Shown one piece after another: positions 8,448 through 56,638 of a DNA stretch of 64,000 nt. A program made the translations under genes and the position numbers. The notes under the pieces are model-generated. The model worked only from the letters and a program-made list of their open reading frames with translations, had not been told where the DNA came from and did not search any database. Origin of the DNA: Larkinella terrae (GTDB taxonomy: Bacteria > Bacteroidota > Bacteroidia > Cytophagales > Spirosomataceae); NCBI RefSeq assembly GCF_009668025.1, contig NZ_WJXZ01000021.1, positions 1 through 64,000 on the forward strand, in the 5' to 3' direction. Numbering within the stretch: position 1 is the stretch's first letter; each line of letters starts with the position of its first letter.

Positions 8448-8572
8448 TGATTACGGTGATCTTTTTGATTACAGTGATTAGAGTTCATTCAACGAGCAGT
8501 GAAAATAGTCAATTCTGCGAACCCAGAAGTCGCAAATTAAAATCAACTTAATCAAGAAAATCACTGTAATCA
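8448..8572. repeat. Intergenic inverted repeat with 9-nt phased units
   Basis: Four consecutive 9-mers start with TGAT (8448-8483: TGATTACGG, TGATCTTTT, TGATTACAG, TGATTAGAG). The 14-mer TGATTACAGTGATT (8466-8479) has a perfect inverted copy at 8559-8572. It fills the gap between two tandem genes and is one of the palindromic loci grouped in the findings. Confidence 0.85.
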
Positions 8573-8576
8573 TCGT

Positions 8577-9422
8577 ATGAAAAAGCTCTTACTCTTTGCC
8601 AGCGGACTGTTTGTCTCGCTGACGTCTTTTGGCCAGGCCGCCTGCTGCGACCAACCCGTAGCCGATGTATCCAATGACATGGCCTTATTGGCCAGTAATC
8701 GTTCATTTGTGATGTTACACGAAGAACCGCTGCCATTTACGTTTCACAGCGCGGCTGGTGAAATGGTGAAATTTAAAACACCGGACGGTAAGGAAGCCAA
8801 CGGTTTTTTGCTGAAAGCACCGAAAGAAACCAACAAATGGCTGTTTGTGTACCAGGAATGGTGGGGTCTGAACGACTACATTAAACAGGAAGCTGAAAAG
8901 CTCTATGGCGATCTGAAAGACGTTAACGTGCTGGCGGTCGATATGTACGACGGCAAAGTGGCCACGACCCGCGAGGAGGCTTCAAAACTGGTTCAGGTGC
9001 CGCGCGAACGGCTGGGAGCCATCATGCAGGGTGCGATTGCGTACGTGGGGCCACAGGCGCAAATTGCCAGCGTAGGCTGGTGTTTTGGGGGTGGCATGTC
9101 GTTGCAGTCGGCGATTCTGGCCGGAAAACAAACCGTTGGCTGCGTGATGTATTACGGCCAGCCGGAAAAAAATGTTGAAAAACTGAAAACCCTGAATACA
9201 GATGTGCTGGGTATTTTCGGCGCAAAAGACACCGGGATTCCGCCCGCAGCGGTTTCTGAATTCGAGAAAAATATGAAGGAAGCAGGTAAGGAAACATCGA
9301 TCAAAATGTATGATGCGCCCCACGCTTTTGCCAATCCGAGTAACCCGGGTTACAACAAGGAAGCGACTGCCGATGCCTATCAGATTACCCTCGATTACCT
9401 GAAAAAGCACCTGAAAGTTTAA
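8577..9422 (+). CDS. Exported dienelactone hydrolase family protein
   Basis: 281 residues with a signal peptide (MKKLLLFASGLFVSLTSFGQ). The alpha/beta-hydrolase core shows the nucleophile elbow GWCFGGG with cysteine in place of serine, as in dienelactone hydrolase, then the acid residue in FGAKDTGIP and the histidine in DAPHAFANP, so the catalytic triad is complete. The block YQEWWGLNDYIKQEAEKL is the family N-terminal signature. It probably hydrolyses an ester or lactone in the periplasm; the substrate is unknown. It starts four bases after the inverted repeat. Confidence 0.9.
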   Translation: MKKLLLFASGLFVSLTSFGQAACCDQPVADVSNDMALLASNRSFVMLHEEPLPFTFHSAAGEMVKFKTPDGKEANGFLLKAPKETNKWLFVYQEWWGLNDYIKQEAEKLYGDLKDVNVLAVDMYDGKVATTREEASKLVQVPRERLGAIMQGAIAYVGPQAQIASVGWCFGGGMSLQSAILAGKQTVGCVMYYGQPEKNVEKLKTLNTDVLGIFGAKDTGIPPAAVSEFEKNMKEAGKETSIKMYDAPHAFANPSNPGYNKEATADAYQITLDYLKKHLKV

Positions 9423-9543
9423 GTTCAGGAGCGGAGGTTTCGGCTAAAAAATCGAACAACTTTTTTGGTTTATGCGTTAAACCTATATGAACCAAACCAG
9501 TCTAACAGGCATCAGAAGTTTGAAACTGTAGACTGTTAACATC

Positions 9544-9825
9544 ATGAAAACGCATAATCTGATTTCAATGCTGTTGATTGCGGTGATTGGTATCTTTCTG
9601 ACCAGTTGTGCGCCCACAGTAGGTGTAAGGGCCGATTATGGCTATGGACCAAGTTACGGATATGGATACAATCCGTATCGGTATGGTTACCGTCGACCGG
9701 TTATTGTAACGCCCCCGCCACGAGTGGTTTACCGGTCTTCCCCCCGGCGATCTTATCGGAATAATTACTATCGGGGTCCGCAACAATATAGTTATCGTTC
9801 ACATCGGGGTCGTGGACCGCGGTAA
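9544..9825 (+). CDS. Small Tyr/Gly/Arg-rich lipoprotein
   Basis: 93 residues. A lipoprotein signal ends in FLTSC (Cys22). The rest is low complexity: Tyr-Gly repeats (YGYGPSYGYGYNPYRYGY), a proline patch (TPPPR) and an arginine-rich tail. No enzymatic domain is visible. Similar small Tyr/Gly-rich lipoproteins are common in Bacteroidota envelopes, but I cannot name a function. It has its own strong terminator, so it is likely a single-gene transcript. Confidence 0.75.
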   Translation: MKTHNLISMLLIAVIGIFLTSCAPTVGVRADYGYGPSYGYGYNPYRYGYRRPVIVTPPPRVVYRSSPRRSYRNNYYRGPQQYSYRSHRGRGPR

Positions 9826-9831
9826 AAATAG

Positions 9832-19017: not shown

Positions 19018-19896
19018 ATGAACCGACGCACTGCCCTTCGGCAAACGATGGGTTTCATTGGCTTAAGCTCCAGTGTTTCCCTGTCCGCATTAAACTCTAA
19101 AATTAATTTAGAAAAGCCAAACAACCAACGTTTCCAGATCGGGGCCTGCGACTGGTCGATTGGTCAATCCAGCAAAATCGAGGCCTTCGATGTCGCCAAA
19201 ACCATCGGTCTCGACGGCATTCAGGTCAACATGGGTTCCGAAAAAAACGACATGCACCTGCGTCAGAAACCCCTGCAAAAAGCCTGGCGCGAAGCGGCCA
19301 AACGAACCGGCGTAAAAGTCGGCGGTCTGGCGCTGGGCGAGATGAATAACATCCCTTACAAATCCGATCCGCGGGCTGAGCAATGGGTTCAGGACAGTGT
19401 CGATGTCGCCAGGGCGCTCGGGGCCAAAAATGTCCTGATGGCGTTCTTCAACAAAGGTGATTTGAAAAACGATCCGAAAGGTACCCAAGTTGTTATTGAG
19501 CGGTTAAAAGCCGTAGCGCCCAAAGCCGAAAAAGCGGGCGTCGTGCTGGCGATCGAATCGTGGTTGAGCGCCGAAGAGCACATGGCTATCATCGACGCGG
19601 TGGCGTCGCCCGCCGTGAAAGTGTATTACGATGTTTGTAACTCCACGGTTATGGGATATGATATTTTAAAGGAAATTCGGTGGCTTGGGAAGCAGAAACA
19701 GATCTGTGAATTCCACTTTAAGGAAAACAGCTTCCTGCTCGGGCAGGGAAAAGTGAATTACCCGGAGGTTCGGAAGGCCATTGACGACATTCAGTACGCC
19801 GGTTGGGTTCACATCGAAGGTGCTGTGCCTGAGGGGAAAAACATGTTGGAAAGTTACACTTATAATAATAAGTTTGTAAGAGAAATTCTGGCGTAG
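19018..19896 (+). CDS. Exported sugar phosphate isomerase/epimerase family (TIM barrel)
   Basis: 292 residues. The N terminus NRRTALRQTMGFIGLSSSVS looks like a twin-arginine signal. The xylose-isomerase-like TIM barrel follows: QIGACDWSIG, GLDGIQVNMGSE, VLAIESWLSAEEH (metal-binding Glu), VYYDVCNS (metal-binding Asp), CEFHFKEN (His) and YAGWVHIEGA (Glu). All four metal-ligand blocks are present, so it should be an active isomerase or epimerase. The substrate is unknown. The next gene encodes a cytochrome-linked dehydrogenase, and such pairs are common in sugar-catabolic sets. Confidence 0.88.
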   Translation: MNRRTALRQTMGFIGLSSSVSLSALNSKINLEKPNNQRFQIGACDWSIGQSSKIEAFDVAKTIGLDGIQVNMGSEKNDMHLRQKPLQKAWREAAKRTGVKVGGLALGEMNNIPYKSDPRAEQWVQDSVDVARALGAKNVLMAFFNKGDLKNDPKGTQVVIERLKAVAPKAEKAGVVLAIESWLSAEEHMAIIDAVASPAVKVYYDVCNSTVMGYDILKEIRWLGKQKQICEFHFKENSFLLGQGKVNYPEVRKAIDDIQYAGWVHIEGAVPEGKNMLESYTYNNKFVREILA

Positions 19897-19910
19897 GCCA
19901 ATTTGGTAAC

Positions 19911-20000
19911 TGTTCCACGGTTTTCTAGAATAACCACTTATTATAATAAGTTTATTAGTCCTTAAATGTTGTTTTTCAGGTAATTATTCCACGTGGAACA
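19911..20000. repeat. Intergenic inverted repeat with TGTTCCACG ends
   Basis: TGTTCCACG (19911-19919) and its perfect inverse CGTGGAACA (19992-20000) bracket the gap. Inside is the 14-bp palindrome CTTATTATAATAAG (19937-19950), and the right arm contains the palindrome TTCCACGTGGAA (19987-19998). The 11-mer CGTGGAACAGT (minus strand, 19909-19919) recurs at 36593-36603. Confidence 0.65.
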
Positions 20001-22941: not shown

Positions 22942-22965
22942 TCTGTCATTACGCGGCTTGTTCTT

Positions 22966-23091
22966 GAACTGGGATTACGCGGATTAAACCGGGCCGCCGG
23001 AGCGGGATTAACTATGATTGGCTGCCGCAATCTTTTATATCCCAGTTAATCCCGCTCCGGCGGCCCGGTTTAATCCGCGTAATCCCAGTTC
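22966..23091. repeat. Perfect 48-bp intergenic inverted repeat
   Basis: Positions 22966-23013 and 23044-23091 are exact inverse complements over 48 bp, with a 30-bp loop. The arms contain internal near-repeats (GGGATTACG, CGGATTAAA, GCGGGATTA). The right arm ends within the stop codon of mpl. It lies between convergent genes and may act as a bidirectional 3' hairpin, but neither side ends in a T run. Confidence 0.97.
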
Positions 23092-24448
23092 AGGACAGGT
23101 TCAGGTTCAATCCACCAAACGTTCCCGAGCTCATGAGCAGAAAAACCGTCGGTTGGCCGTTGTTCTGGTTTTTCAGAAAAGTCTCTAATTCTGCTGAGTC
23201 GGTAAAAACCTGCAAATCGGGGCGGTCGAAAGCCGTGGCGATGTCAGCCGCGTCAATTGGGTCGAGGTGTTTTACTTCCAGCGTGTGCGGGCTGTAGAAA
23301 ACCACGGGCACATCAGCTTTGTCCAGTTTATCGCGGTATTGGTTCAGGCAGGTTTTGTTCAGCAGGCTGCTAAAGGTGTGCAGCTCAACCGCAGCCACCA
23401 GACGCCGGTCGGGAAACTGCGCTTTTACCGCGGCCGTGGTTGCTTCTACTTTAGAAGGCGCGTGGGCAAAATCCCGGAAAACCAGGGTAGAACCATCGTC
23501 TTTTACTTTTTCCAGCCGCTTGTGCGCGCCTTTGAAGCTCTGGATGGCGGCATAGAACATATCTTCCGTAATCGCCAAGTGGTCGCAGATGGCCAGCGCC
23601 CCGCTGATGTTTTTCATGTTGTGTTCGCCAAAAACCAAAACCGGTACGTGGCCGTGGTTTTTCGTAACCAGTACGGTTTTGCCGTTTTCGATCCGGTACG
23701 GATGCACATCGTACGGCTGGCGGGTCACATCTTCCCGTTCTTTCAGGGCAATGACGTCCAGCATATCGTCCGTATCATCGAAAACAATCGTGCCGGATTT
23801 CGACATCGCGTCGGCCAGCAATTCAAACTGGTGGACATACTGATCGTAGGTTGGATAAAGATTGACGTGATCCCAGGCAATGCCGCTGATCAGCACCATG
23901 TGCGGGTGATAATGCAAAAACTTCGGCCGGGGGTCGGTAGGTGAGGTGCCGTATTCATCGCCCTCAATGACGATAACCGGGGCGTTGGTGGTTAGCTTCA
24001 CCATCGTATCGAAACCTTCAATCTGCGCGCCAACCAAATAATCGAAATGACGATGATGGTACTGCAAAACGTGAAGAACCATCGCCGTGATCGTGGTTTT
24101 GCCGTGGCTACCGGCAATGACGACGCGCTGTTTGTTCTGACTTTGCCGGAACACAAATTCCGGGTACGAATAAACCGGCAGATTCAGCTCCTGCGCTTTC
24201 AGCAGCTCGGGATTGTCGGCCCGGGCGTGCATGCCCAGAATAACCGCATCGAGACCGCCGTGGATCGCGTCGGCATTCCAGCCAGTTTGCGCGGGTAATA
24301 AACCATATTTTTCGAGTCGGGTTCGTGAGGGTTCGTAAATATCGTCGTCGGAGCCCGTGATGTGGTGTCCTTGCTGGTGCAGCGCAATGGCCAGATTGTG
24401 CATGACGCTGCCGCCGATGGAGATAAAATGAATGGTCTGTGGCTTCAT
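23090..24448 (-). CDS. mpl: UDP-N-acetylmuramate:murein tripeptide ligase (Mpl)
   Basis: 452 residues, the usual length. A Mur ligase with an N-terminal nucleotide-binding fold (FISIGGSVMHNLAIAL), the P-loop VIAGSHGKTTITAM, the central IEGDEYGTS block that distinguishes Mpl from MurC, ISGIAWDHVNLYPT, and the C-terminal domain with FRDFAHAPSKVEAT. It attaches recycled L-Ala-D-Glu-meso-DAP tripeptide to UDP-MurNAc in the cytoplasm, saving cell-wall peptides. Together with murQ at 60.5-61.3 kb this indicates active peptidoglycan recycling. Confidence 0.96.
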   Translation of the reverse strand: MKPQTIHFISIGGSVMHNLAIALHQQGHHITGSDDDIYEPSRTRLEKYGLLPAQTGWNADAIHGGLDAVILGMHARADNPELLKAQELNLPVYSYPEFVFRQSQNKQRVVIAGSHGKTTITAMVLHVLQYHHRHFDYLVGAQIEGFDTMVKLTTNAPVIVIEGDEYGTSPTDPRPKFLHYHPHMVLISGIAWDHVNLYPTYDQYVHQFELLADAMSKSGTIVFDDTDDMLDVIALKEREDVTRQPYDVHPYRIENGKTVLVTKNHGHVPVLVFGEHNMKNISGALAICDHLAITEDMFYAAIQSFKGAHKRLEKVKDDGSTLVFRDFAHAPSKVEATTAAVKAQFPDRRLVAAVELHTFSSLLNKTCLNQYRDKLDKADVPVVFYSPHTLEVKHLDPIDAADIATAFDRPDLQVFTDSAELETFLKNQNNGQPTVFLLMSSGTFGGLNLNLS

Positions 24449-27176: not shown

Positions 27177-28250
27177 ATGAATGACATGATGAAACGATGG
27201 TTATTGATGCTATGGCTGGTCGGTCTGACCACTCCACTGGTTGCCCAGGGACCGAAAATTATCCAGCGTGATCTGAATCCTCCGCAGGTTGCGGGATCTC
27301 ATAGTGGCTCTATTACTAAAATAGAATATACGCAACATAAAATGATTGTTCATTTTATGTCGGAGAACAATGAGCATGCTACTCTTTACGGGCCAGGACA
27401 CAAAAATAGCTGGCGATTATATGATACATTAAGGAGGAAAGAATATGCAATGCTCTATATAAAAAACGTTCGGGTTAACGGTGAATTAGTGGTGCCGATT
27501 ATTGATAAGCCAGAAGGGGAAGAATTCGTGAATGCCAGACAGCTATCCTGTGAGATTCATTTTGAGCGACCTGGGAAAGATACTCGGTCAATTGATATGA
27601 TTGAGGAAGGTATACGACAGTATAAAAGGCAGACTCCGTATGGTTATAACGCGCAATGGCCTTATAACATCTACAACATTAGGGTGTTGGCTTACAAAGA
27701 CGACATGCGGAATTCAAAACCGCCCGTTCAGAAACCGGTGGTAAAACCGAAGACGAACCCGGCTACTCCACCTACCCAACGAACCACTCCAACCACTCCA
27801 AAACCGGCTCCGAAAGATTCGGTGGTTGCCGAGGCTCCGCCGAAAGTGTCGCCAAGCCCAAAACCGGTTGAAAAAGTAGAAAACTTTGGTTCCAAAGTCG
27901 AAGCAGGCCGGACCTATCGCCTGAATAACCTGTTATTCAAGCAATCGGCGTACGAAATTGAGCCCACGTCGTATCCCGAACTCGATTCGCTGGTCGCGAT
28001 CATGAAGCGTAATCCGGCAATGGAAATCGAACTAGCTGGCCATACCGACAACGTGGGCGATCCGAAATTAAACGTTGCCTTGTCGAAGAAACGCGTCGAT
28101 GCCGCCAAAAGCTACCTGACAAACCACGGAATCGATCCAACGCGGATTCAAACGCAGGCCTACGGCGGCAGCCGCCCTATTGCCGATAATTCGCGCGAAG
28201 AAACCAAGCGGCTGAACCGACGCGTGGAGGTAAAGATATTGAAGGAATGA
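27177..28250 (+). CDS. OmpA-family protein with unknown N-terminal domain
   Basis: Up to 357 residues; ATGs at 27177, 27186 and 27189 are all possible, and 27189 gives the cleanest signal peptide (MKRWLLMLWLVGLTTPLVAQ). An uncharacterised domain (about 25-180) is followed by a Pro/Thr/Lys linker (about 185-225) and an OmpA C-terminal peptidoglycan-binding domain (LAGHTDNVGDPKLNVALSKKR, RRVEVKIL). It should tie the outer membrane to the cell wall. The N-terminal domain region is visibly AT-richer, with ATA and AGA codons rare in its neighbours, while the OmpA part is normal. Confidence 0.88.
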   Translation: MNDMMKRWLLMLWLVGLTTPLVAQGPKIIQRDLNPPQVAGSHSGSITKIEYTQHKMIVHFMSENNEHATLYGPGHKNSWRLYDTLRRKEYAMLYIKNVRVNGELVVPIIDKPEGEEFVNARQLSCEIHFERPGKDTRSIDMIEEGIRQYKRQTPYGYNAQWPYNIYNIRVLAYKDDMRNSKPPVQKPVVKPKTNPATPPTQRTTPTTPKPAPKDSVVAEAPPKVSPSPKPVEKVENFGSKVEAGRTYRLNNLLFKQSAYEIEPTSYPELDSLVAIMKRNPAMEIELAGHTDNVGDPKLNVALSKKRVDAAKSYLTNHGIDPTRIQTQAYGGSRPIADNSREETKRLNRRVEVKILKE

Positions 28251-28335
28251 AAAATGTAAAATGAAGAATGTTAAATGTAAAAGTAGGCTGGCGTGTCCAA
28301 AACACTTTTACATTTAGCATTCTTCATTTTACATT
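28246..28335. repeat. Heptad-phased inverted repeat, 31-bp arms
   Basis: Arms 28253-28283 and 28305-28335 match at 30 of 31 positions; the one difference is a G.U pair in plus-strand RNA. The left side is five consecutive 7-mers beginning AATG (28246-28280: AATGAAA, AATGTAA, AATGAAG, AATGTTA, AATGTAA). The first contains the stop codon of the OmpA gene. The right arm stops four bases before the valS stop codon. Confidence 0.95.
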
Positions 28336-28338
28336 CTT

Positions 28339-31035
28339 TTACAGTGCCGCCAGGTTTTCTTCCAGCGTTTTGATTTTGGTTTCGGCGTCGGCCAGTTTCT
28401 GGCGTTCGCGCTCGATAATTTCCGGTTTGGCGTTGGCGACAAACTTCTCGTTCGAGAGCTTTTTCAAAACCGATTCCAGAAAGCCCTTCGTGTAAGTCAG
28501 TTCCTTTTCGATGTTGGCGCGTTCCTGCTCGACATCAATTTCACCGGCGATGTTGACGAAAAACTCGGTGCTCCTGATCAGAAACGAAACGCCCTCGGCT
28601 TTTTCGGAAACGTAATTCACCTCAGAAACGATGGCCAGCTTCTGAATCAGGCTTTCCAGCGGTTGAAAACGGGCCGGATCATCGGTTTTGATCGCCAGCG
28701 GCAGGGCGGTTTTCGGACTGATCAGCTTGGTGTTACGAATGTTCCGAATGGATGAAATGATGTCGAACAGCAGGTCAAAATCAGCCAGAACGGTTTTGTC
28801 GACAACACCAGCGGTCGGATAGTCGGCCACACAGATGCTTTCGCCCGGTTTCCGTTCACTGATTTCCTGCCAGATTTCCTCCGTAATGAACGGCATGAAC
28901 GGATGCGCCAGCTTCATCAGGCGCTCGAAGAAGTCAATCGTGGCGTCGTAGGTCACCTGATCGATCGGTCGGACCTGATCCTGCTGCTCGTAACCCGGTT
29001 TGATCATTTCGAGGTATTGCGAACAGAAATCGTCCCAGATCAGCTTGTAAACCGTTTGCAGCGCATCCGACATCCGGTATTTGCTGAAATGGTCTTCCAG
29101 TTCGATCAGCGTTTGGTTCAGTTTCGATTCAAACCACAAAACCGCCAGCGGTTTTTCGGTAACCGCCGAATCCGAACTGACTTTCCAGCCTTTTACCAGC
29201 CGGAAGGCGTTCCAGATTTTGTTGCAGAAATTCCGGCCCTGTTCCACCAACTTCTCGTCATACAGCAAATCATTCCCCGCCGGCGAGCTGAACAACATGC
29301 CCGTCCGGACGCCATCGGCGCCAAACAGCTCGATCAGATCGAGCGGATCGGGCGAGTTGCCGAGCGATTTCGACATTTTGCGGCCCTGTTTATCGCGGAC
29401 AATCCCGGTCAGGTAAACATTCTGGAACGGTTCGCGGCCTTTGTATTCGTAACCGGCAATGATCATTCGGGCTACCCAGAAGAATAGAATTTCCGGGGCC
29501 GTTACCAGGTCGTTGGTCGGGTAATAATAATCGAGATCGCCCGGTGCGGCTTTGGGGTCGTTCGCATCGTTCGACGGCAGAAAAACCGACATCGGCCAGA
29601 GCCAGGACGAAAACCAGGTGTCCAGCACGTCCTCATCCTGCGTAAGATCGGTTTCGCTCAGGGCGAACAGCTGAAATTTGTCACGGGCGATCCGCAGCGC
29701 GTCCTTTTTGGTTTTGGCAACGATGATCGTGCCGTCTTTCATGTAAAACGCCGGAATCCGGTGGCCCCACCAGAGTTGGCGGCTAATACACCAGTCGTGT
29801 ACGTTCTCCATCCACGAGCGGTACATATTTTTGAACTTGGCCGGATGTAGCTGAATGGTGTCATTCATGACGTTTTCCAACGCCGGTTTCGACAAATCGC
29901 CCATTTTCAGGAACCACTGCAGCGACAACTTCGGCTCGATCACAGCGTTGGTACGTTCCGAAAAACCGACATTCGACTTGTAATCTTCCGCAACCACCAG
30001 GTGACCCGTTTCTTCCAGTTGTTTGATGATGGCTTTCCGGGCGGCAAACCGATCAACGCCCACAAAAATCCGGGCTTTTTCGTTCAGCGTACCATCGTCG
30101 TTCAGAATGTCGATAACGGGCAGGTTGTGCTTCACGCCCAGCGCGTAGTCATTCGGGTCGTGGGCGGGCGTTACTTTCAAACATCCCGTACCAAAATCCA
30201 TCGTGACGTAGTCGTCCGTAATGATCGGAATTTCCCGGTTAATCAGCGGAATCAGGACTTTTTTGCCGTGTAAATGCGTATACCGTTCATCGCTCGGATT
30301 GACGGCAATTGCCACATCGGCCATAATTGTTTCCGGCCGTACCGTGGCAATCGTAACGTAGCTCGGGGCAGAGGGCATAGGGTCCGGGGATTCATCACCC
30401 ATTGCCCTCTGCCCTGAACCCTCTGCAACCTCATACCGAATGTAACACAGCTTCTGCTGGACTTCCTTCGTGATGACCTCTTCGTCCGAAACCGCCGTGC
30501 GGCCCTGCGGATCCCAGTTGACCATCCGGATACCCCGGTAAATCTGGCCTTTGTTGTACAGATCGACGAACGTGTCAATGACAGCATCATACAAAACCGG
30601 TTCCATCGTGAAGCGCGTCCGGTCCCAGTCGCAGGACGCACCGAGTTTCCGCAGCTGCTTCAGGATAATTCCGCCGTATTTATGGGTCCATTCCCAGGCG
30701 TGTTCGATGAATTTCTCCCGGCCAATGTCCTTTTTATTGATTCCCTGATCCTTCAGCATTGCCACGACCTTCGCTTCCGTGGCAATGGACGCATGGTCGG
30801 TTCCCGGCACCCAACAGGCGTTTTTGCCCTGCATCCGCGCTTTCCGAATCAGCACATCCTGAATCGTGTTGTTTAGCATGTGGCCCATGTGCAATACGCC
30901 CGTCACGTTCGGGGGCGGAATGACGATGGTATACGGTTCGCGCTCGTCGGGAGTGGAATGGAAAAAGCGGTTTTCCAGCCAGTACTGGTACCACTTTTCC
31001 TCAATGTCTTTCGGATTATACGTCTTTGAAATCAT
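28339..31035 (-). CDS. valS: Valyl-tRNA synthetase
   Basis: 898 residues from the ATG at 31035, chosen because [19 protein letters not shown] is the normal ValRS start; the frame continues upstream only through a repeat. Class I motifs HMGH (about 49-52) and KMSKS (about 553-557) are present, as are the editing-domain block [11 protein letters not shown], the [15 protein letters not shown] block, and a C-terminal coiled coil from about 830. It charges tRNA-Val. Residues 204-224 are encoded by a heptad-phased inverted repeat (see separate entry), an in-frame insertion in a loop of the editing domain. Confidence 0.97.
30364..30426. repeat. Heptad-phased inverted repeat inside valS, in frame
   Basis: Arms 30366-30383 and 30397-30414 are inverse over 16 of 18 bases. 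GGG recurs every seven bases at 30366, 30373, 30380 and 30387, and CCC every seven at 30398, 30405, 30412 and 30419. The 63 bp equal 21 codons and give a Gly/Ser/Pro-rich segment ([20 protein letters not shown]) between the strand CYIRYEV and the conserved [12 protein letters not shown]. Close bacterial ValRS have only a short turn here. Confidence 0.85.
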
Positions 31036-31042
31036 GTCAACG

Positions 31043-31111
31043 GAGAGGTGAGAGGTGAGACAAGAGAGTAAAGACTCATCGAAACCCAAAGTCTTTACTC
31101 TCTTGTCTCAC
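31043..31111. repeat. Heptad-phased inverted repeat between divergent valS and DUF72 genes
   Basis: A perfect 22-bp pair, 31055-31076 with 31090-31111, and a 13-base loop. The left side is four 7-mers in phase (31043-31070: GAGAGGT, GAGAGGT, GAGACAA, GAGAGTA). The 20-mer at 31057-31076 recurs inverted at 45374-45393. It sits between two start codons, so here it cannot be a 3' terminator. Confidence 0.93.
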
Positions 31112-31225
31112 TTCTCTTGTCTATTTCTTCTATTTCTTCCACAAAATTAGTCAATTCAGAACGGGCACGAAAACGAAATACCGGGTTTGGTAGTTTTACG
31201 TTGGCACTACCATCCCTTTTTACGC

Positions 31226-32289: not shown

Positions 32290-32320
32290 AGCCCGGTTCT
32301 GCTTCAGAGCCGGGCTTTTT
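32290..32320 (+). terminator. Intrinsic terminator upstream of hisH
   Basis: AGCCCGGTTCTG (32290-32301) pairs with CAGAGCCGGGCT (32305-32316) over 12 bp with one G.U, followed by a T run. It ends the DUF72 transcript, leaving very little room for a separate hisH promoter. Confidence 0.9.
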
Positions 32321-32321
32321 C

Positions 32322-32393
32322 GTACTCCGGAGCGTTGCTCCGGTGAATCGTTATTTGCAGCTTAAAAATCACCGGAGCAACGCTCCGGCGTAC
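32322..32393. repeat. Inverted repeat before hisH (CCGGAGC palindromes)
   Basis: Arms 32322-32346 and 32369-32393 match at 24 of 25 positions. Each arm contains the small palindrome CCGGAGC-N3-GCTCCGG, so the site can fold as two small hairpins or one long one. The right arm ends four bases before the hisH ATG. The same palindrome is repeated just after hisH. Confidence 0.93.
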
Positions 32394-32396
32394 AAA

Positions 32397-32984
32397 ATGA
32401 AAACCGTCATTATCAAATACAACGCCGGAAACGTGCAGTCGGTGATGTACGCGCTGGAGCGCATCGGCGCCAGCTACCTGCTGACCGACGATGAAGCCGA
32501 AATCCGTTCGGCCGACAAAGTCATTTTCCCGGGCGTGGGCGAGGCCAGTACGGCCATGGCCTATTTGCGCCAGCGCGGCCTGGACAAAGTGATTCCGTCG
32601 CTGAAGCAGCCGGTTTTGGGAACCTGCGTGGGCATGCAACTGCTCTGCCGGTATTCGGAGGAAGGCGACACGACCTGCATGGGCGTGTTCGACGTTGATG
32701 TCCGGCGGTTTGACCAAAAGCCCGGTTTTAAAGTGCCGCATATGGGCTGGAACAACCTGACCAACCTGCAAGGTCCGCTGACCGAAGGCTTACCCGAGAA
32801 TGCCTATGTGTATTTCGTGCACAGCTACTGCGCCGATATTTCTCCGGAAACCACAGCGGTTTGTGACTACGTCCGGCCATTCAGCGCTATGTTGCAAAAA
32901 GATAATTTTTACGCAGCCCAGTTTCACGCCGAGATCAGCGGGAACATCGGGCAACGCATTCTGGAAAATTTTTTGAAATTGTAA
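32397..32984 (+). CDS. hisH: Imidazole glycerol phosphate synthase, glutaminase subunit HisH
   Basis: 195 residues from the ATG at 32397; upstream codons lie inside the repeat. A class I glutamine amidotransferase with nucleophile cysteine in LGTCVGMQLL and the His/Glu of the triad in QFHAEISG, where alanine replaces the usual proline of FHPE. It releases ammonia from glutamine for HisF to make imidazole glycerol phosphate and AICAR. It is first in the hisH-hisA-hisF-hisIE set, but related palindromic repeats enclose it on both sides. Confidence 0.95.
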   Translation: MKTVIIKYNAGNVQSVMYALERIGASYLLTDDEAEIRSADKVIFPGVGEASTAMAYLRQRGLDKVIPSLKQPVLGTCVGMQLLCRYSEEGDTTCMGVFDVDVRRFDQKPGFKVPHMGWNNLTNLQGPLTEGLPENAYVYFVHSYCADISPETTAVCDYVRPFSAMLQKDNFYAAQFHAEISGNIGQRILENFLKL

Positions 32985-32985: not shown

Positions 32986-33058
32986 GTACACCGGAGCGTT
33001 GCTCCGGTAATGGTTTAAGATATAAACAAATACTCACCGGAGCAACGCTCCGGTGTAC
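32986..33058. repeat. Inverted repeat after hisH (CCGGAGC palindromes)
   Basis: Arms 32986-33008 and 33036-33058 are perfect inverse complements over 23 bp. They carry the same CCGGAGC-N3-GCTCCGG core as the locus before hisH. It starts one base after the hisH stop codon and ends five bases before hisA. Confidence 0.95.
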
Positions 33059-33063: not shown

Positions 33064-33786
33064 ATGCACATTATACCCGCCATCGACCTGATTGAAGGCA
33101 AAGCCGTCCGGCTGACGCAGGGCGATTATAATCAGAAGAAAGAATACAACGCCCGGCCACTCGAAGTGGCGCAGCAATTTGAAGATGCCGGTTTGACCCG
33201 CCTGCACCTGGTGGATCTCGACGGTGCGAAGGCAAAGCGCGTGGTCAACTGGAAAGTATTGGAGCTGATTGCCGGAAAAACCAATCTTCACATCGATTTT
33301 GGCGGGGGCGTTCAATCCGACGACGACCTACGGATGGTTTTGGAATGCGGGGCCAAACAGGTGACGGGCGGGAGTATTGCCGTCAAAAAACCGGATGTTT
33401 TTGAAAAATGGCTCTCAACATTTGGCTCGGAAACCATTATCCTGGGCGCGGATGCGAAAAACGAGAAAATTGCCGTCAGCGGCTGGGAGGAAGATACGAA
33501 GGTCTGGGTGTACGATTTTGTGGAAAATTACGTCGAAAAGGGCGTGAAATATGTTATCAGCACCGACGTGGCCAAAGACGGTTTGCTGGAAGGGCCTTCG
33601 TTCGATTTATACCGTAATTTGCAGGACCGGTTTCCGGATCTGAACATCATCGCCAGCGGGGGCGTCAGCGGGTTGCAGGACCTCGAAGTACTGGCAGATA
33701 TGAACCTATTCGGCGTTATCGTCGGCAAAGCGATTTACGAAGGCCGGGTGACGCTGAAGGAGTTACAAAAATTTAATGAGCAATGA
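33064..33786 (+). CDS. hisA: Phosphoribosylformimino-5-aminoimidazole carboxamide ribotide isomerase HisA
   Basis: 240 residues. Half-barrel symmetry is evident, with the catalytic aspartates in IPAIDLIEGKAVRL and ISTDVAKDG and phosphate-binding glycines in DFGGGVQ and ASGGVSG. It catalyses the Amadori rearrangement of ProFAR, the fourth step of histidine synthesis. The gene lies between two intergenic inverted repeats in what otherwise looks like one operon. Confidence 0.96.
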   Translation: MHIIPAIDLIEGKAVRLTQGDYNQKKEYNARPLEVAQQFEDAGLTRLHLVDLDGAKAKRVVNWKVLELIAGKTNLHIDFGGGVQSDDDLRMVLECGAKQVTGGSIAVKKPDVFEKWLSTFGSETIILGADAKNEKIAVSGWEEDTKVWVYDFVENYVEKGVKYVISTDVAKDGLLEGPSFDLYRNLQDRFPDLNIIASGGVSGLQDLEVLADMNLFGVIVGKAIYEGRVTLKELQKFNEQ

Positions 33787-33790
33787 AACG

Positions 33791-33863
33791 CAATGAATAA
33801 TGAATAATGAACAATGAATTGCGTGCGTTACCCCTTTCATTGTTCATTATTCATTATTCATTG
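33791..33863. repeat. Heptad-phased inverted repeat between hisA and hisF
   Basis: Arms 33791-33818 and 33836-33863 are perfect inverse complements over 28 bp with a 17-base loop. The left arm is four 7-mers in phase (33792-33819: AATGAAT, AATGAAT, AATGAAC, AATGAAT). It begins four bases after the hisA stop and ends ten bases before the hisF ATG. Confidence 0.96.
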
Positions 33864-33873
33864 TCCATTAGAC

Positions 33874-36612: not shown

Positions 36613-36640
36613 TGTCGGTTCACAATCGTATTATTGTGGA

Positions 36641-39189: not shown

Positions 39190-39205
39190 AGTGCAATGAG
39201 TTATT

Positions 39206-39291
39206 TCGCGGAGTTGAGCGGAGAAAAAAGGAGTTAAGCGGAGGTTATTTTTTCTCTGCTTAACTCCTTTTTTCTCCGCTCAACTCCGCGA
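39206..39291. repeat. Inverted repeat with 38-bp arms and 10-nt phase
   Basis: Arms 39206-39243 and 39254-39291 match at 37 of 38 positions; the odd pair is G.U in plus-strand RNA. The loop is 10 bases. Units repeat every ten bases (GCGGAGTTGA, GCGGAGAAAA, AAGGAGTTAA, GCGGAGG). It lies between convergent genes. Confidence 0.96.
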
Positions 39292-39307
39292 TACAACCCC
39301 CAACCGA

Positions 39308-45317: not shown

Positions 45318-45407
45318 TAGAGAATAGAGGTTAGACAAGAGAAGAAAGACGAAGTAATTGAGTGCATCAAACAAGTCTTTACTCTCTTGTCTCTCTTCTA
45401 ACTTCTC
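45315..45407. repeat. Heptad-phased inverted repeat after the sigma factor gene
   Basis: Arms 45333-45350 and 45375-45392 match at 16 of 18 positions. Five consecutive 7-mers end in AGA (45315-45349: TAATAGA, GAATAGA, GGTTAGA, CAAGAGA, AGAAAGA); the first holds the TAA stop codon. The right arm carries the 20-mer also found at 31057-31076. Confidence 0.88.
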
Positions 45408-48679: not shown

Positions 48680-48711
48680 CGGTTTACAGTTTTATACTAC
48701 AATACAGGTTC

Positions 48712-50211
48712 ATGGTTTCTGAAACGGCTGAAAAGACGGTATCTGCAGCGATGCTGGCCAAATACGAGTTGGTAATTGGTCTGGAAGTTCACTGCCAGCT
48801 CCTGACGGCAACGAAAATCTTTGCCGCCGATTCCAATCAGTTTGGCAGCGATCCGAACACCAACATCAGCGTCATCACGCTGGGGCATCCGGGCACCTTG
48901 CCCAAACTCAACCGCAAAGCCGTCGAACTGGCGGTTCGCATGGGAGTAGCCTGTCAATCAGCGATTACACAATACAATGTCTTTGCCCGCAAAAACTATT
49001 TTTATCCCGACCTGCCGAAAGGTTACCAGTTGTCGCAGGATAAAACGCCGGTTTGCGTTGGGGGTCGGGTGCCGGTAAAATTTAGGGACGCCAGCGGAAA
49101 TCTGATCGAGAAAGCGGTTTTTCTGCACCACATTCACCTGGAAGAAGACGCCGGAAAATCGATTCACGACGGCGACTGGCATACCTCGCTGGACTACAAC
49201 CGCGCCGGAACGCCCCTGATCGAGATGGTGACCGACCCGACTATCCGCAGTGCCGAAGAAGCGGCAGCCTACCTGACCGAAGTCCGGCGGCTGGTTCGGT
49301 ACCTGGATATTTGCGATGGAAATATGGAGGAAGGCTCGCTGCGTTGCGACGTGAACATTTCCGTGCGTTTGTGGGGCCAGGAAGAGTTTGGGACGAAAGT
49401 CGAGATCAAAAACATGAATTCCATCCGCAATGTGCAGCGGGCGATCGATACGGAATTCCGGCGGCAGGTCGAAACGGTTGAAAACGGCGGAACAATTGTG
49501 CAGGAAACCCGGATGTTCGACGCTAACACGGGCCTGACGTACGGCATGCGGATGAAGGAAACGATGAACGACTACCGGTATTTTCCGGACCCGGATCTGA
49601 GCCCGGTTATTATTTCGGACGAATGGCTGTCCACTATTCGCGCCCAGATGCCCGCGTTGCCGAAAGAACGGTTTGAAAAGTTACTGAACCACTACGGTTT
49701 GCCGGAATACGACGCGACCTTGATCGCCGATGTGAAAGAACTGGCGGATTATTTTGAAGCGGTTTGCCAGCAAACGACGAATTATAAGGCGGTTTCCAAC
49801 TGGATTATGGGCCCCGTAAAAGCCCATTTGACCGAAAAATCGCTCCGCGATGGCCAGTTTTCGCTTTCGGCCGGACGGCTGTCGGAATTGATTAATTTGG
49901 TAGATTCAGGAAAAGTAAGTTTCTCGACGGCCAGCCAGCGGATTTTTCCGGTTTTGATCGAGCAGCCGGAAAAGTCACCGGAACAGGTGGCGCAGGAACA
50001 GAATTTGCTCCAAAACAGCAATACCGATACGTTGCAAACGTTGGTAGATGAGGTGCTGGCAGCCTGGCCCGATAAAGTAAAAGAGTACAAAAAGGGTAAA
50101 AAAGGATTGCTGGGCCTGTTTGTTGGCGAAGTAATGAAAAAATCGAAAGGCAGCGCCGACCCGAAATTGACCAATGAATTGCTGCAAAAAGCATTGTCGT
50201 CTCCGTTATAA
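48712..50211 (+). CDS. gatB: Asp-tRNA(Asn)/Glu-tRNA(Gln) amidotransferase subunit B
   Basis: 499 residues, slightly longer than usual because of about 15 N-terminal residues before YELVIGLEVHCQL. The signature LPKGYQLSQDKTPVC and the tRNA-binding helices (MRMKETMNDYRYFPDPDL, LRCDVNISVR) are complete. The C-terminal YqeY-like tail domain is present. With GatA and GatC, not in this window, it converts Glu-tRNA(Gln) or Asp-tRNA(Asn) to the amide. Twelve bases separate it from the thioredoxin-like gene. Confidence 0.97.
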   Translation: MVSETAEKTVSAAMLAKYELVIGLEVHCQLLTATKIFAADSNQFGSDPNTNISVITLGHPGTLPKLNRKAVELAVRMGVACQSAITQYNVFARKNYFYPDLPKGYQLSQDKTPVCVGGRVPVKFRDASGNLIEKAVFLHHIHLEEDAGKSIHDGDWHTSLDYNRAGTPLIEMVTDPTIRSAEEAAAYLTEVRRLVRYLDICDGNMEEGSLRCDVNISVRLWGQEEFGTKVEIKNMNSIRNVQRAIDTEFRRQVETVENGGTIVQETRMFDANTGLTYGMRMKETMNDYRYFPDPDLSPVIISDEWLSTIRAQMPALPKERFEKLLNHYGLPEYDATLIADVKELADYFEAVCQQTTNYKAVSNWIMGPVKAHLTEKSLRDGQFSLSAGRLSELINLVDSGKVSFSTASQRIFPVLIEQPEKSPEQVAQEQNLLQNSNTDTLQTLVDEVLAAWPDKVKEYKKGKKGLLGLFVGEVMKKSKGSADPKLTNELLQKALSSPL

Positions 50212-51375: not shown

Positions 51376-51477
51376 AAAGTTTACGGTATTCGGTTTTCTG
51401 TTTACGGTGGCTAACGCACGCTTTTAGAATGCGTCAGCCTACCGAAAACCGTAAACTGAAAACCATAAACTGAAAAC
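51376..51477. repeat. Heptad-phased imperfect inverted repeat before proC
   Basis: The right side is five 7-mers ending in AAAC in exact phase (51443-51477: CGAAAAC, CGTAAAC, TGAAAAC, CATAAAC, TGAAAAC). The left side has the inverse pattern (TTTACGG, TATTCGG, TTTTCTG, TTTACGG from 51381). AAAGTTTACGGT (51376-51387) is shared with 35262-35273. It ends nine bases before the proC ATG. Confidence 0.88.
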
Positions 51478-51486
51478 CCACTGAAA

Positions 51487-52290
51487 ATGAAGATTGCTAT
51501 TGTCGGTTGCGGCAACATGGGGATGGCTTTTGCCAAATCCTTTTTGCAATATGATCTGGTAAAAAAAGACGACCTGCTGTTAATTGAAAAAAGCGCGGAT
51601 CGCTCCGAAGCGTTAAAAGCTGAAAAAACCGGGGTTGTGGTCGATACGATCAGTGCCCGCATTTCGGATTCGGATTTGATCATCTTATCCGTTAAACCTC
51701 AGGATTTTAGTAGTTTGCAGGAAGCCTTGCGGGAAACCATTCAGCCGCAACAGGTGGTGTTGTCGATCATGGCTGGGATTCCGATTGCGACCATTCAGGA
51801 GAAGCTGAACCACCGGCTGGTGATCCGCGCGATGCCCAACACCCCCGCGATGCTCGGCATGGGTATTACCGGTTTTACGGCCGCCAAAGAAGTGGACCTG
51901 AACAACCTGCGGAAAGTCGAAAACCTGATTAATGCGACGGGCCGGTCGATTTTTCTGGAAGACGAAACGATGCTCGATGCCGTCACGGCACTGAGCGGCA
52001 GCGGCCCGGCCTACTTTTACTACCTCGTTAAAGCGATGGTCGAGGCCGGAAAGCAGATGGGCTTCGATGATTCGGTGGCTTCGCTGCTCGTCAAGCAAAC
52101 GATGCTGGGCGCTTTCCACCTGATCAACAATGCCGACAAATCACTGGACGACCTGATCAAAGCCGTCGCGTCCAAAGGCGGCACGACCGAAGCGGCCCTG
52201 AAACGGTTTGAAGAAGGCGAACTGGCCGATACGCTGATTGCGGGCATCAAAGCCGCCCAAACCCGCGCTACGGAGCTTAGCAAATCATAA
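51487..52290 (+). CDS. proC: Pyrroline-5-carboxylate reductase
   Basis: 267 residues. The NADPH-binding motif IVGCGNMGMAFAKSF is at the N terminus, IIRAMPNTPAM-like text (VIRAMPNTPAMLGMGITG) is central, and the ProC signature ALSGSGPAYFYYLVKAMVEAGKQMGF precedes SKGGTTEAAL. It makes proline from pyrroline-5-carboxylate in the cytoplasm. Inverted repeats lie on both sides. Its stop codon is inside the left arm of the downstream one. Confidence 0.96.
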   Translation: MKIAIVGCGNMGMAFAKSFLQYDLVKKDDLLLIEKSADRSEALKAEKTGVVVDTISARISDSDLIILSVKPQDFSSLQEALRETIQPQQVVLSIMAGIPIATIQEKLNHRLVIRAMPNTPAMLGMGITGFTAAKEVDLNNLRKVENLINATGRSIFLEDETMLDAVTALSGSGPAYFYYLVKAMVEAGKQMGFDDSVASLLVKQTMLGAFHLINNADKSLDDLIKAVASKGGTTEAALKRFEEGELADTLIAGIKAAQTRATELSKS

Positions 52291-52386
52291 CCCTGACAGC
52301 GGCTGAAAGCCCTGTCAGCGGTTTTAGCAGTTTAGCTCAAACTATAAATTCAACCGCTGACAGGGCCTTTGGCCGCTGTCAGGGTT
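52289..52386. repeat. Inverted repeat with 35-bp arms between proC and purB
   Basis: Arms 52289-52323 and 52352-52386 are identical at 32 of 35 positions; two of the three differences are G.U pairs in plus-strand RNA. Each arm holds the near-palindrome CTGACAG...CTGTCAG. The left arm includes the end of the proC stop codon; the right arm ends three bases before the purB stop codon. Confidence 0.95.
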
Positions 52387-54609: not shown

Positions 54610-54617
54610 GGGCGGTT

Positions 54618-55943
54618 TTACGATTGGTTCAACTGCTTGAGTAATTTCCCAACAGCAGCATAAACCGTATCCAACTGTTCGTCCGTGATGCAATACGGGG
54701 GAAAAATATACAGCACATTCCCCAAAGGCCGCATCAAAACCCCTTCGTTGAGCAGAAACTGGTAGGCCACATCCCGGATGTTGCTGAAATAAGACCGGCT
54801 TGCGTCGCCCACATCCAGATCGAACGCCAGAATCGTCCCCTGCTGGCGGATGTTTTTTACACCCGGTTTTTGCTTCAACTGTTCCGCAAAAACCGCATGC
54901 CGATGGGCGATGCGCTGAATAGCTACCTGCGTTTCGTCGGAAAGCAACAGATCCAGGCTGGCCAGTGCCGCCGTACAGGCCAGTGGATTGGCCGTGAAGG
55001 AGTGTCCGTGGAAAAGCGTTTTGTGTTTGTTGCTGGAGAGAAAAGCGTCGTAAATTTCTTTCGTACAGGTCGTAACGCCCAGCGCCATGGTTCCACCCGT
55101 CAGCCCTTTCGACAAACTCATCAAATCCGGTTGTTCGCTCAGGTAATGAGATGCGAACAATTTGCCGGTTCGGCCAAAACCGGTCATGACTTCGTCGGTA
55201 ATGATCAGCGCCCCGTGGCTCCGGGCCAGGCTCATGAGTTGATTCAGAATTTCCGGCGCGTACATGACCATACCACCCGATCCCTGCACCAGCGGTTCTA
55301 CGATAAAAGCCGCGACTTCGTCACTTAACAGGGCCTGCAACTGCTCCAAAGCCGCCTGTTCCTGACCCGGAGCGGGGGCCGGAATGTATTCCACATCGAA
55401 CAGAAAGGGGACAAACGGAGCCGTAAAAGCACTGCGTCCACTCACCGCCATCGCTCCGAAGGTGTCGCCGTGGTAGGCATCGTCCAGCGCAATTACTTTC
55501 CGGCGCGGTTTTCCGAGGTTGTGCCAGTATTGAAATGCCATTTTGAGCGCCACTTCCACCGCCGTCGAGCCGTTGTCGGAATAGAAAATCCGGTTCTGGT
55601 TTTTCGGCAAAATCGTTAGTAAGCGCTCCGCCAGTTCGACGGCCGGCTGATGGGTAAAACCGGCAAAAATGACGTGCTCGAGTGTCTGAAGCTGTTTCGC
55701 GACCTTTTCGGCAATGTACGGATGGCTGTGTCCGTGAATGGTAACCCACCACGACGAAACCGCATCGATGTACGTTTTTCCATCCTCAGCAAATAACAAA
55801 GTGCCTTCGCCCCGCACAATCGGAATGGGCAGGGGAGCGGTTTGCATTTGCGTAAAAGGGTGCCAGATCACGGTCTGGTCGCGTTCACTCAAACCCGCAA
55901 AGTCTTCAAGACCTTGCGGGTTTTGTTCCTCTTTAACCTGCAT
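54618..55943 (-). CDS. bioA: Adenosylmethionine-8-amino-7-oxononanoate aminotransferase
   Basis: 441 residues from the ATG at 55943; a longer frame to 56057 lies inside bioD and is not used. BioA marks include WHPFTQMQ, SSWWVTIHGHSHPYIA, YHGDTFGAM, ITDEVMTGFGRTG and the PLP lysine in DLMSLSKGLTGG. It uses SAM as amino donor to make diaminopelargonate for biotin. It overlaps bioD by 11 bp, so translation is probably coupled. Confidence 0.96.
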   Translation of the reverse strand: MQVKEEQNPQGLEDFAGLSERDQTVIWHPFTQMQTAPLPIPIVRGEGTLLFAEDGKTYIDAVSSWWVTIHGHSHPYIAEKVAKQLQTLEHVIFAGFTHQPAVELAERLLTILPKNQNRIFYSDNGSTAVEVALKMAFQYWHNLGKPRRKVIALDDAYHGDTFGAMAVSGRSAFTAPFVPFLFDVEYIPAPAPGQEQAALEQLQALLSDEVAAFIVEPLVQGSGGMVMYAPEILNQLMSLARSHGALIITDEVMTGFGRTGKLFASHYLSEQPDLMSLSKGLTGGTMALGVTTCTKEIYDAFLSSNKHKTLFHGHSFTANPLACTAALASLDLLLSDETQVAIQRIAHRHAVFAEQLKQKPGVKNIRQQGTILAFDLDVGDASRSYFSNIRDVAYQFLLNEGVLMRPLGNVLYIFPPYCITDEQLDTVYAAVGKLLKQLNQS

Positions 55944-56565
55944 AAATTTCTTCCAGTAAAGCACGCATTTTGGTTGCGTACTGACTAACAAAATCATTCG
56001 TAACGCCGGTTTTCCACTCAATCCGTCCGAAACTGCGTAAACCGGTATAATTGACAATAAAATCCTCCGATGTCGGCGTTGCTGGTCCGTTAAAAACCAG
56101 GCCGAGGATCGGAATGCCGCGCCGTTGTAATGCTTCGACCGACAACAAGGTGTGATTAATACTTCCCAGATAATGTTTGGAAACCAGCAAAACCGGCAGG
56201 TTCAGTTGCTGCACCAGGTCAATATTCAGATCACGATCGTTCAGCGGGACCAGCAAACCGCCCGCCAGCTCGACCACCAGGTGATTGGAGGTTTTGGGTA
56301 ACTGAAATGCGGGAAGCGAAATTTCAACCCCATCAATGGCAGCTGCCGCGTGGGGCGATAAGGGTTCGCGGAGTCGGTACGTTTCCGGGTGAAACCGGGT
56401 AACGGAATTGGAGATGAGTCGCCGGACGGTTTCGGTATCCGAGTCTTCCAAAGCCCCGGATTGCACCGGTTTCCAGTAATCGGCCTGTAGGGCCTCCACC
56501 ACAATGGATGAGACGACGGTTTTGCCGATTTCGGTACCAATTCCGGCAATAATCAATTTACGCAT
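55933..56565 (-). CDS. bioD: ATP-dependent dethiobiotin synthetase
   Basis: 210 residues. The P-loop is GIGTEIGKTVVSS, the substrate loop YWKPVQSGALEDSDTE and the nucleotide-specific VELAGGLLVPL are present. It closes the ureido ring in biotin synthesis. It lies between bioF and bioA on the minus strand, and a short inverted repeat fills the 75-bp gap to bioF. Confidence 0.95.
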   Translation of the reverse strand: MRKLIIAGIGTEIGKTVVSSIVVEALQADYWKPVQSGALEDSDTETVRRLISNSVTRFHPETYRLREPLSPHAAAAIDGVEISLPAFQLPKTSNHLVVELAGGLLVPLNDRDLNIDLVQQLNLPVLLVSKHYLGSINHTLLSVEALQRRGIPILGLVFNGPATPTSEDFIVNYTGLRSFGRIEWKTGVTNDFVSQYATKMRALLEEIYAG

Positions 56566-56590
56566 CTGTTGACAAGTTTGATAGGAACAA

Positions 56591-56638
56591 GGATTCGACG
56601 GATTTACACGGATAAATCCGTTTTAATTCGTTTAATCT
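56591..56638. repeat. Short inverted repeat between bioF and bioD
   Basis: ACGGATTTA (56598-56606) pairs with TAAATCCGT (56613-56621), and pairing continues imperfectly outward. GGAT recurs at 9-10-base spacing (56591, 56600, 56610). The GGATT words resemble those in the 22.97-kb repeat. Confidence 0.65.

What the first reader, a model, noticed from the sequence alone, without database searches (positions are those of the whole stretch)
8448..56638. A dense system of intergenic palindromes with internal 7-nt phase
Seen: at least 14 gaps hold a long inverted repeat of about 50-125 bp (8.45, 19.9, 22.97, 28.25, 31.05, 32.3, 33.0, 33.8, 35.26, 39.2, 45.3, 51.4, 52.3 and 56.6 kb), roughly one per 4 kb, plus one inside valS and a related tandem repeat at 36.6 kb. 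At six or seven loci the arms are runs of near-identical 7-mers in strict phase (AATGnnn at 28.25 and 33.8 kb; GAGANNN at 31.05; nnnnAGA at 45.3; nnnAAAC at 51.4; GGGnnnn in valS). Other loci have a phase of 9 or 10. The sequence is different at most loci, so no single consensus repeat (REP, MITE) describes them; only the architecture is constant. They occur between tandem, convergent and divergent genes, so termination alone does not explain them. Heptanucleotide STRR repeats of cyanobacteria are the nearest known comparison. The mechanism that makes private, phased, inverted sequences is unknown to me.
Basis: partly seen in the sequence, partly recalled or inferred. Interest (0 to 1): 0.9.

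Follow-up and report, generated by a model that had tools for sequence, protein, structure and literature searches.

The report
Self-mirroring heptad hairpins between genes
Between the genes of Larkinella and some related bacteria sit many small hairpin-shaped DNA repeats, often built from 7-letter units, whose two halves stay mirror images while the sequence itself is rewritten or swapped, which makes them a natural test bed for how DNA palindromes arise and persist.

Summary
The observation largely holds. Inverted repeats are at 12 of 14 named gaps; a 7-nt phase is confirmed at 28.25, 31.05, 33.8, 45.3, 51.4 kb and in valS. In 864 kb of this Larkinella genome there are 131 noncoding hairpins against 0-1 per shuffle, with arm autocorrelation peaks at 7, 14, 21 nt; more distant Cytophagales have fewer and no such peak. 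'Private' is wrong: the sequences are dispersed families. Several unphased ones are REP/REPIN-like and match palindromes beside RAYT-type genes. Many phased ones share an apex GCTNNCGC, clearest in a sister genus. Gaps keep a hairpin across species while its arms often change family. Mirrored double changes (transversions at least as common as transitions), inverted spacers at four slots and no G-U excess favour polymerase template switching in DNA over RNA-level selection. Whole hairpins come and go. What moves them, and why the step is 7, stay open. Verdict: small dispersed palindromes, probably mobile, kept mirror-perfect by template switching; a new variant of known REP and heptad-repeat kinds.

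The parts
8447..8571 (.). Imperfect palindrome, GATTACNGTGATT type; near-empty in G005, larger palindrome in G006
22962..23095 (.). 57-nt-arm palindrome (GGGATTAA type, weak lag 9); the slot holds other families in G003, G005, G006, with an inverted spacer between G005 and G006
28246..28338 (.). AATGNNN heptad hairpin; same family in G003 and G006 with mirrored arm changes; decamer family in G005
30363..30417 (.). In-frame heptad palindrome inside the valyl-tRNA synthetase gene; not present in this form in G003, G005, G006
31040..31116 (.). GAGANNN heptad hairpin; other family in G005
32318..32397 (.). REPIN-like CCGGAGCG pair; absent in G003, G005, G006; matches palindromes on both sides of the Y1-like gene of L167 (G008)
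32986..33058 (.). Second REPIN-like CCGGAGCG copy; GAGANNN heptad hairpin in the same gap of G003, G005, G006
33783..33869 (.). AATGAAT heptad hairpin; CTCCGCTCAACTCCGCG family in the same gap of G003 and G006
39200..39297 (.). GGAGTTNAGC hairpin (lag 10, 20-nt unit); arms differ among four species yet stay mirrored
45319..45404 (.). AGANNNN heptad hairpin found in this gap in seven of the eight relatives compared, not G007
48680..48712 (.). Slot nearly empty in the window; GTTTACG hairpin present in G002, G003, G005, G006, G008; short GGTTTACAGTTT remnant in the window
51379..51482 (.). GTTTACG heptad hairpin with apex GGCTGACGC / GCGTCAGCC; member of a dispersed family
52289..52386 (.). CCCTGACAGCGG palindrome, directly after a stop codon; related palindrome at G000:C6:171894
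56596..56641 (.). ACGGATT decamer element, weak in the window; spacer in opposite orientations among relatives

Best explanation
These are small, dispersed, palindromic repeats of intergenic DNA, of two overlapping sorts: (a) REP/REPIN-like palindromes, several matched to palindromes beside RAYT-type (Y1) genes, and (b) heptad-armed palindromes, many with an apex of the type GCTNNCGC. They behave like non-autonomous mobile hairpins: whole elements appear, vanish or are replaced by another family in the same gap, mostly just behind a stop codon. SHOWN: dispersal, shared gaps, family replacement, mirrored change of both arms, spacer inversion, heptad arrays being mostly palindromic. INFERRED: the arms are kept alike because a stalled polymerase uses one arm, or its nascent copy, as template for the other (quasipalindrome template switching), which repairs mismatches and can flip the spacer; slippage by whole units shuffles and lengthens the heptads and template switching then copies the change into the other arm; new copies arrive by hairpin-targeted, single-strand transposition, RAYT-driven for sort (a), by an unknown enzyme for sort (b). 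NOT EXPLAINED: why the step is 7 in many unrelated unit sequences.
For: Over chance and 7-phased. Dispersed: the 51.4 kb element has matches in 7 of 9 Larkinella genomes, 61-79 matches in each of six of them (both strands counted, only 40 candidates scored per genome). Same gap, other family; G016 against G432, 68 orthologous gaps, hairpin in both 19, one only 13, neither 36 (Fisher p 6e-7), but arms resemble each other in only 5 of 19. Mirrored change: closest pair (flanks 93% identical) 13 mirrored against 10 one-sided, or 12 against 6 without the one replaced slot, 7 of those 12 being transversions; ten slots of more distant species 82 mirrored (54 transversions, 28 transitions) against 163 one-sided, pairwise and not independent. 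Passages of PMC8604942 state that template switching homogenizes arms and inverts spacers, and cite bacterial data in which it favoured transversions; PMC7202029 abstract describes the E. coli mechanism. Spacers inverted at 3 Larkinella slots and one G016/G432 slot. No RNA wobble excess: G-T 36 to A-C 36 in Larkinella, 30 to 44 in G016/G432. Apex with many different arm families. Whole elements gained or lost: in 12 of 13 discordant gaps the other species shows no clear arm match (score 0.38 or less).
Against: No insertion was witnessed, no target duplication established, and no enzyme was tied to the heptad sort: the five RAYT loci of G016 and G012 lack the exact core within the stretches read; one has a variant-core hairpin on one side only. 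Mirror identity within a copy (97-98%) is inflated because hairpins were found by requiring complementarity. Single changes outnumber mirrored ones in the distant comparisons. The loop test could align only 18 of 64 comparisons (12 forward, 6 inverted), and the 48.69 kb inversion is weak (22 against 10). Inversion could also be re-insertion in the other orientation. Selection at the DNA level (ssDNA hairpin recognition) would also give mirrored change without G-U excess. Gap sharing may reflect gaps that tolerate hairpins rather than replacement in place.
Confidence: 0.6

Rival explanations
1. RNA-level function: hairpins are terminators or 3'-end stabilisers; selection for base pairing keeps the arms complementary by ordinary compensatory mutation.
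For: They sit close behind stop codons (median 14.5 nt from the upstream stop in tandem gaps of G016/G432) and are rarer in divergent gaps (Larkinella 5 of 65 against 93 of 414 tandem and 13 of 43 convergent; G016/G432 19 of 110 against 88 of 354 and 22 of 75).
Against: No G-U excess among mismatches in transcript sense. Mirrored transversions at least as common as transitions. Five or more T in the 8 nt after the stem in only 12% of 103 longer hairpins, 25% of 16 small short-loop ones. Does not explain the 7-nt phase or family replacement.
Confidence: 0.15
2. All of it is REP/REPIN biology: every family is mobilised by a present or lost RAYT, and the heptad arms are degenerate spacers of REPINs.
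For: All 3 RAYT genes of G000 have palindromes beside them, as do 18 of 25 further Y1-like loci read in the genus; at least 18 of the 131 hairpins carry such words (my count by eye on the list). Passages of PMC3733652 report REP dimers sitting inside longer palindromes in two species, and passages of PMC6006769 'atypical secondary structures' beside Bacteroidetes subclass 2.6 genes.
Against: 7 of those 25 loci showed no palindrome in the stretch scanned. No Y1-like gene was found flanked on both sides by the heptad core. Heptad arms vary while only the apex is constant, the opposite of REPIN spacers.
Confidence: 0.15
3. Fold-back generator: the apex core folds on itself and primes copying of whatever DNA lies beside it, so palindromes are made from local sequence.
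For: In G016 the core lies at the centre of palindromes whose arms are of many families, a few non-periodic (L261, L272, L280); some arms run on as heptads on one side only.
Against: In 12 of 13 gaps with a hairpin in one species only, the other species shows no clear copy of an arm. Arm families recur at many loci, so arms are not local host sequence.
Confidence: 0.07
4. Chance or assembly artefact.
For: None found.
Against: Shuffles give 0-1 against 131; the same pattern occurs in several independently sequenced genomes.
Confidence: 0.01

Closest known systems
REP / REPIN elements with RAYT (TnpA-REP) transposases
   Same: Short palindromes, intergenic, close to 3' ends, in tandem and convergent gaps; several families here have matching palindromes beside Y1 genes. 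Passages of PMC3116915, PMC3733652, PMC6006769 seen.
   Different: Heptad-armed class: constant apex and variable phased arms, no Y1 gene flanked on both sides found; family replacement in the same gap.
Heptad repeats: cyanobacterial STRR (recalled) and TAACTGA repeats of Beggiatoaceae, cyanobacteria and five Bacteroidetes (PMC4679880, abstract and section 10 read)
   Same: Intergenic 7-nt units, several unit sequences per genome, patchy distribution, 7-nt indels reported.
   Different: The paper describes mainly direct repeats (169 sets direct, one indirect, in one genome). Here 132 of 155 noncoding arrays of period 7 or its multiples lie in palindromes.
Small dispersed repeats (SDR) of Nostoc (Elhai et al. 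2008; recalled, paper not held)
   Same: By recall: a hairpin of 21-27 nt often embedded in tandem heptads and in nested insertions. The core here is about 30 nt and sits in heptads.
   Different: Other sequence and phylum; here the heptads are mirrored around the core.
Quasipalindrome template switching (Ripley model; PMC7202029 abstract, PMC8604942 passages)
   Same: Arm homogenization, spacer inversion.
   Different: Known as a mutation process at scattered sites; here it would shape a whole repeat class.

Membership tests
REP/REPIN (RAYT-associated) | Same palindrome beside a Y1 (RAYT) gene | tested here: met
   For GTCGCGTAGCGAC, AACCGTTTTAACGGTT, CAACCCCNNCGGGGTTG, CGTGCCGTNNGGTACNCAA families and CCGGAGCG of 32.3/33.0 kb (L167, whose Y1 score 21.9 is below the 23-bit cut-off; homologues in G008 only)
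REP/REPIN (RAYT-associated) | Heptad core class beside a Y1 gene on both sides | tested here: not met
   3 + 25 Larkinella loci and 5 loci of G016/G012 read with limited flanks; one single-sided variant core near L266
REP (GTAG or CGTC tag) | Unpaired GTAG or CGTC tag at the foot of the stem | not tested
   The core contains CGTC but inside the paired stem; GTAG-like CTACAAACAT seen by eye near the GTCGCGTAGCGAC family only
STRR / heptad repeats | Intergenic tandem 7-nt units | tested here: met
   155 of 225 noncoding arrays have period 7 or a multiple; lag-7 z 10.7, 24 in G016 core arms
STRR / heptad repeats | Direct (not mirrored) array | tested here: not met
   132 of 155 lie in palindromes; also 37 of 70 arrays of other periods do
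SDR | Short constant hairpin embedded in heptads | tested here: met
   48 of the 52 G016 cores read; 47 of 48 centred in arms of 11-51 nt, one (L282) with no arm
Intrinsic terminator | Stem followed by a T-run | tested here: not met
   12% of 103 longer hairpins; termination itself not testable
MITE | Target-site duplication | not tested
   Insertion edges lie in diverged gaps; only inspected by eye
Rfam RNA families | Match at gathering score | tested here: not met
   Window has only 5S rRNA at 1-86

The most novel reading that the evidence does not exclude
A class of mobile DNA inherited by shape rather than by sequence: a roughly 30-nt apex hairpin (GCTNNCGC type) carried in mirror-symmetric heptad arms, where the gap and the symmetry persist across species while template switching and family exchange rewrite the letters, and where newer palindromic modules settle at the apex of older ones, giving nested mosaics; the 7-nt step would be set by an unknown enzyme common to all arm families.
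Probability: 0.25. Interest if true: 0.88.

Novelty: new variant of a known kind. Interest (0 to 1): 0.72.

Why it matters
Long palindromes are usually thought unstable, yet these genomes carry one about every 4-7 kb and all nine Larkinella genomes and G016 have an SbcD-family nuclease gene. They offer natural, replicated examples of arm homogenization and spacer inversion, so the template-switch model can be tested by comparing strains. They also connect two old puzzles, heptad repeats and REP-type palindromes, in one organism, and make the question of why bacterial intergenic repeats favour 7 nt testable.

Tried and rejected
Private sequences: rejected. All REP/RAYT: rejected for the heptad class on present evidence. 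Fold-back copying of local DNA: not supported. Loss of SbcCD as the reason for tolerance: not supported, SbcD present. RNA selection: disfavoured. Strict restriction to Larkinella and nearest kin: mostly supported, but G028 of another family shows a weak lag-7 and lag-14 signal (z 2.3 and 2.8 from 9 hairpins), and G012 little (z 1.7 from 17) although it has 11 cores. RAYT number against heptad copies in nine genomes looked suggestive (G001, G004, G007 low in both) but G008 has few RAYTs and many copies; not used. Synteny of contig C6 with G008 was too broken to use. Literature: searches listed nothing describing these elements in Larkinella or relatives; the library is open-access only and one search listed 12 of 1,121 papers.
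Full report
What was checked. The window is G000:C14:1-64000 of a 7.85 Mb genome. Three same-genus genomes have contigs of the same length as named records, Larkinella knui, L. punicea and L. humicola, so the genus is Larkinella.

Over chance. A scan for ungapped inverted repeats gave 137 hairpins, 131 of them noncoding, against 1, 0 and 1 noncoding ones in three shuffles that kept dinucleotides and the coding/noncoding partition. Pooled left arms match themselves at lag 7 (0.395 against 0.287, z 10.7), lag 14 (z 8.1) and lag 21 (z 6.5), with a smaller peak at 10 (z 4.5). Of 120 arms of 16 nt or more, 42 have p below 0.05 at lag 7, where 6 would be expected; the best lag (z 2 or more) was 7 in 42, 9 in 14, 10 in 13 and another in 10. 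In 1.38 Mb from 65 of 80 named loci, hairpins per 10 kb were 2.33 in Larkinella, 1.77 in Spirosoma with Fibrisoma, 1.05 in Runella, 0.58 in Dyadobacter, Emticicia and Siphonobacter, and 0.40 in other Cytophagales; lag-7 z was 8.9, 5.3, not computed, not computed and -1.2. A weak signal in G028 (z 2.3, nine hairpins) is the exception.

Not private. The 51.4 kb element matches other places in its own genome at 79-81% identity and in sister species at up to 87%, apart from the orthologous slot in G008 at 96%. The copies read consist of units like GTTTACG, GTTTTCR, GTATTCG in varying order, with an apex GGTGGCTGACGC...GCGTCAGCCACC in most of the 30 loci (some are the same place read from both strands); within a copy the order is usually mirrored. 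A second family (at C6:218589) has many copies in G003 and G008.

Two classes. G000 has three Y1/RAYT genes (one search confirms Y1_Tnp), each with palindromes beside it that recur among the 131 hairpins. In the nine genomes, 25 further Y1-like loci were read: 18 had a palindrome in the stretch scanned, 7 had none. L167 (G008), whose Y1 score is just under the Pfam cut-off, has on both sides the CCGGAGCG REPIN of window 32.3 and 33.0 kb; G000 has no homologue of that protein, so these two would be orphans. The heptad class is different. The core GGCTGACGC N4-30 GCGTCAGCC occurs in 3 of 395 sampled Bacteroidota genomes, all of one family: 4 in G000, 11 in G012, 52 in G016 (the backward control was zero in these three and one elsewhere). 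Other Larkinella genomes were not in that sample but carry it. In G016, 48 of 52 cores were read with flanks: 47 lie centrally in arms of 11-51 nt (median 33.5 over all 48) and one has no arm; arm autocorrelation at lag 7 is z 24. Arms are of many families; a few are not periodic. In 400 kb of G016 there are 99 noncoding hairpins, some of them nested mosaics of several palindromic modules in mirror order. By a regular-expression sorting of these, a GCT..CGC-type apex occurs in 36 of 51 hairpins with a recognised heptad arm and 7 of 48 without.

Slots persist, sequences do not. In Larkinella the gaps at 22.97, 28.25, 31.05, 33.0 and 33.8 kb hold hairpins of different families in different species, and 48.69 kb is nearly empty in the window but filled in five relatives. 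In G016 against G432, 68 of 264 gaps could be matched; a hairpin is in both at 19, in one at 13, in neither at 36 (Fisher p 6e-7); arm similarity in the 19 averages 0.38 against 0.24 for random pairing, and 14 of 19 look unrelated. In L. humicola against L. punicea (flanks 93% identical) 44 of 56 gaps matched: both 10, one 4, neither 30; one of the 10 had changed family. Where one of G016 and G432 lacks the hairpin, its gap shows no clear arm in 12 of 13 cases, so elements come or go whole. Three G016 elements were in effect searched against their genome: nearest other listed copies were 89%, 85% and 81% identical, while one had a 92% match at a non-orthologous place in G432 (list truncated).

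How symmetry is kept. In ten Larkinella slots, pairwise, 1585 stem pairs were unchanged, 82 had changed on both sides and still paired (54 transversions, 28 transitions), 163 had changed on one side (55 to G-T, 40 to A-C, 68 other), 8 were broken on both, 73 fell in gaps (comparisons are not independent). In the closest pair the numbers were 262, 13, 10, 1 and 25, or 12 mirrored against 6 one-sided when the replaced slot is left out. Transversions cannot pass through a G-U step, and mismatches in transcript sense show no G-U excess: 36 to 36 and 30 to 44. Spacers could be aligned in 18 of 64 same-family comparisons: 12 forward, 6 inverted, the latter from slots 22.97, 56.6 and (weakly) 48.69; one G016/G432 slot is inverted too. 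The clearest is 22.97, where the G005 spacer is the reverse complement of the G006 spacer (score 48 against 16). Arm homogenization and spacer inversion are the two published marks of template switching at inverted repeats (PMC8604942 passages; PMC7202029 abstract).

Heptads and palindromes go together. Of 225 noncoding tandem arrays in 1.56 Mb of G000, G016 and G432, 155 have period 7 or a multiple, and 132 of those lie in palindromes; of the 70 others 37 do. This sets them apart from the mainly direct TAACTGA arrays of PMC4679880.

Context. Hairpins are rarer in divergent gaps than in tandem and convergent ones and lie close to the upstream stop, as passages of PMC3733652 report for REPs. 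T-runs follow few of them. No Rfam family matches.

Limits. Hairpins were found by requiring complementarity, so high mirror identity is partly built in; the evidence lies in what changes between species. Gene calls are greedy open reading frames. No insertion was seen happening. The enzyme for the heptad class and the reason for 7 are unknown.

Noticed in passing
window 19855-19999: The 19.9 kb inverted repeat is nearly unchanged in three relatives and is followed by a TTCCACGTGGAAC palindrome (2 matches counted on both strands, 0.12 expected); looks like a conserved regulatory site, unlike the other hairpins.
   Followed up: partly
window 30363-30417: Heptad palindrome inserted in frame in the valyl-tRNA synthetase gene, at a spot that varies in length (19-34 nt) in three relatives, reminiscent of palindromic elements inside Rickettsia genes (recalled).
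   Followed up: partly
G016:C12:679997, 741806, 445362 and others: Nested mosaic palindromes with modules such as CCCTTCGACAGGCTCAGGGTGACAG and GGGCCTCCGGCCCG at the apex of older arms.
   Followed up: partly
L174 (G005:C12): A divergent Y1-like gene (24.1 bits) with about 50-nt-arm palindromes on both sides, the inner part like palindromes found in G016.
   Followed up: no
G000:C6:208850-209865 (L058:8850-9865): A different repeated coding-like stretch with many 65-75% matches in G003 and G008.
   Followed up: no
window 36572-36613: A 13-nt tandem repeat (3.2 copies) without a mirror, reduced or absent in relatives.
   Followed up: no
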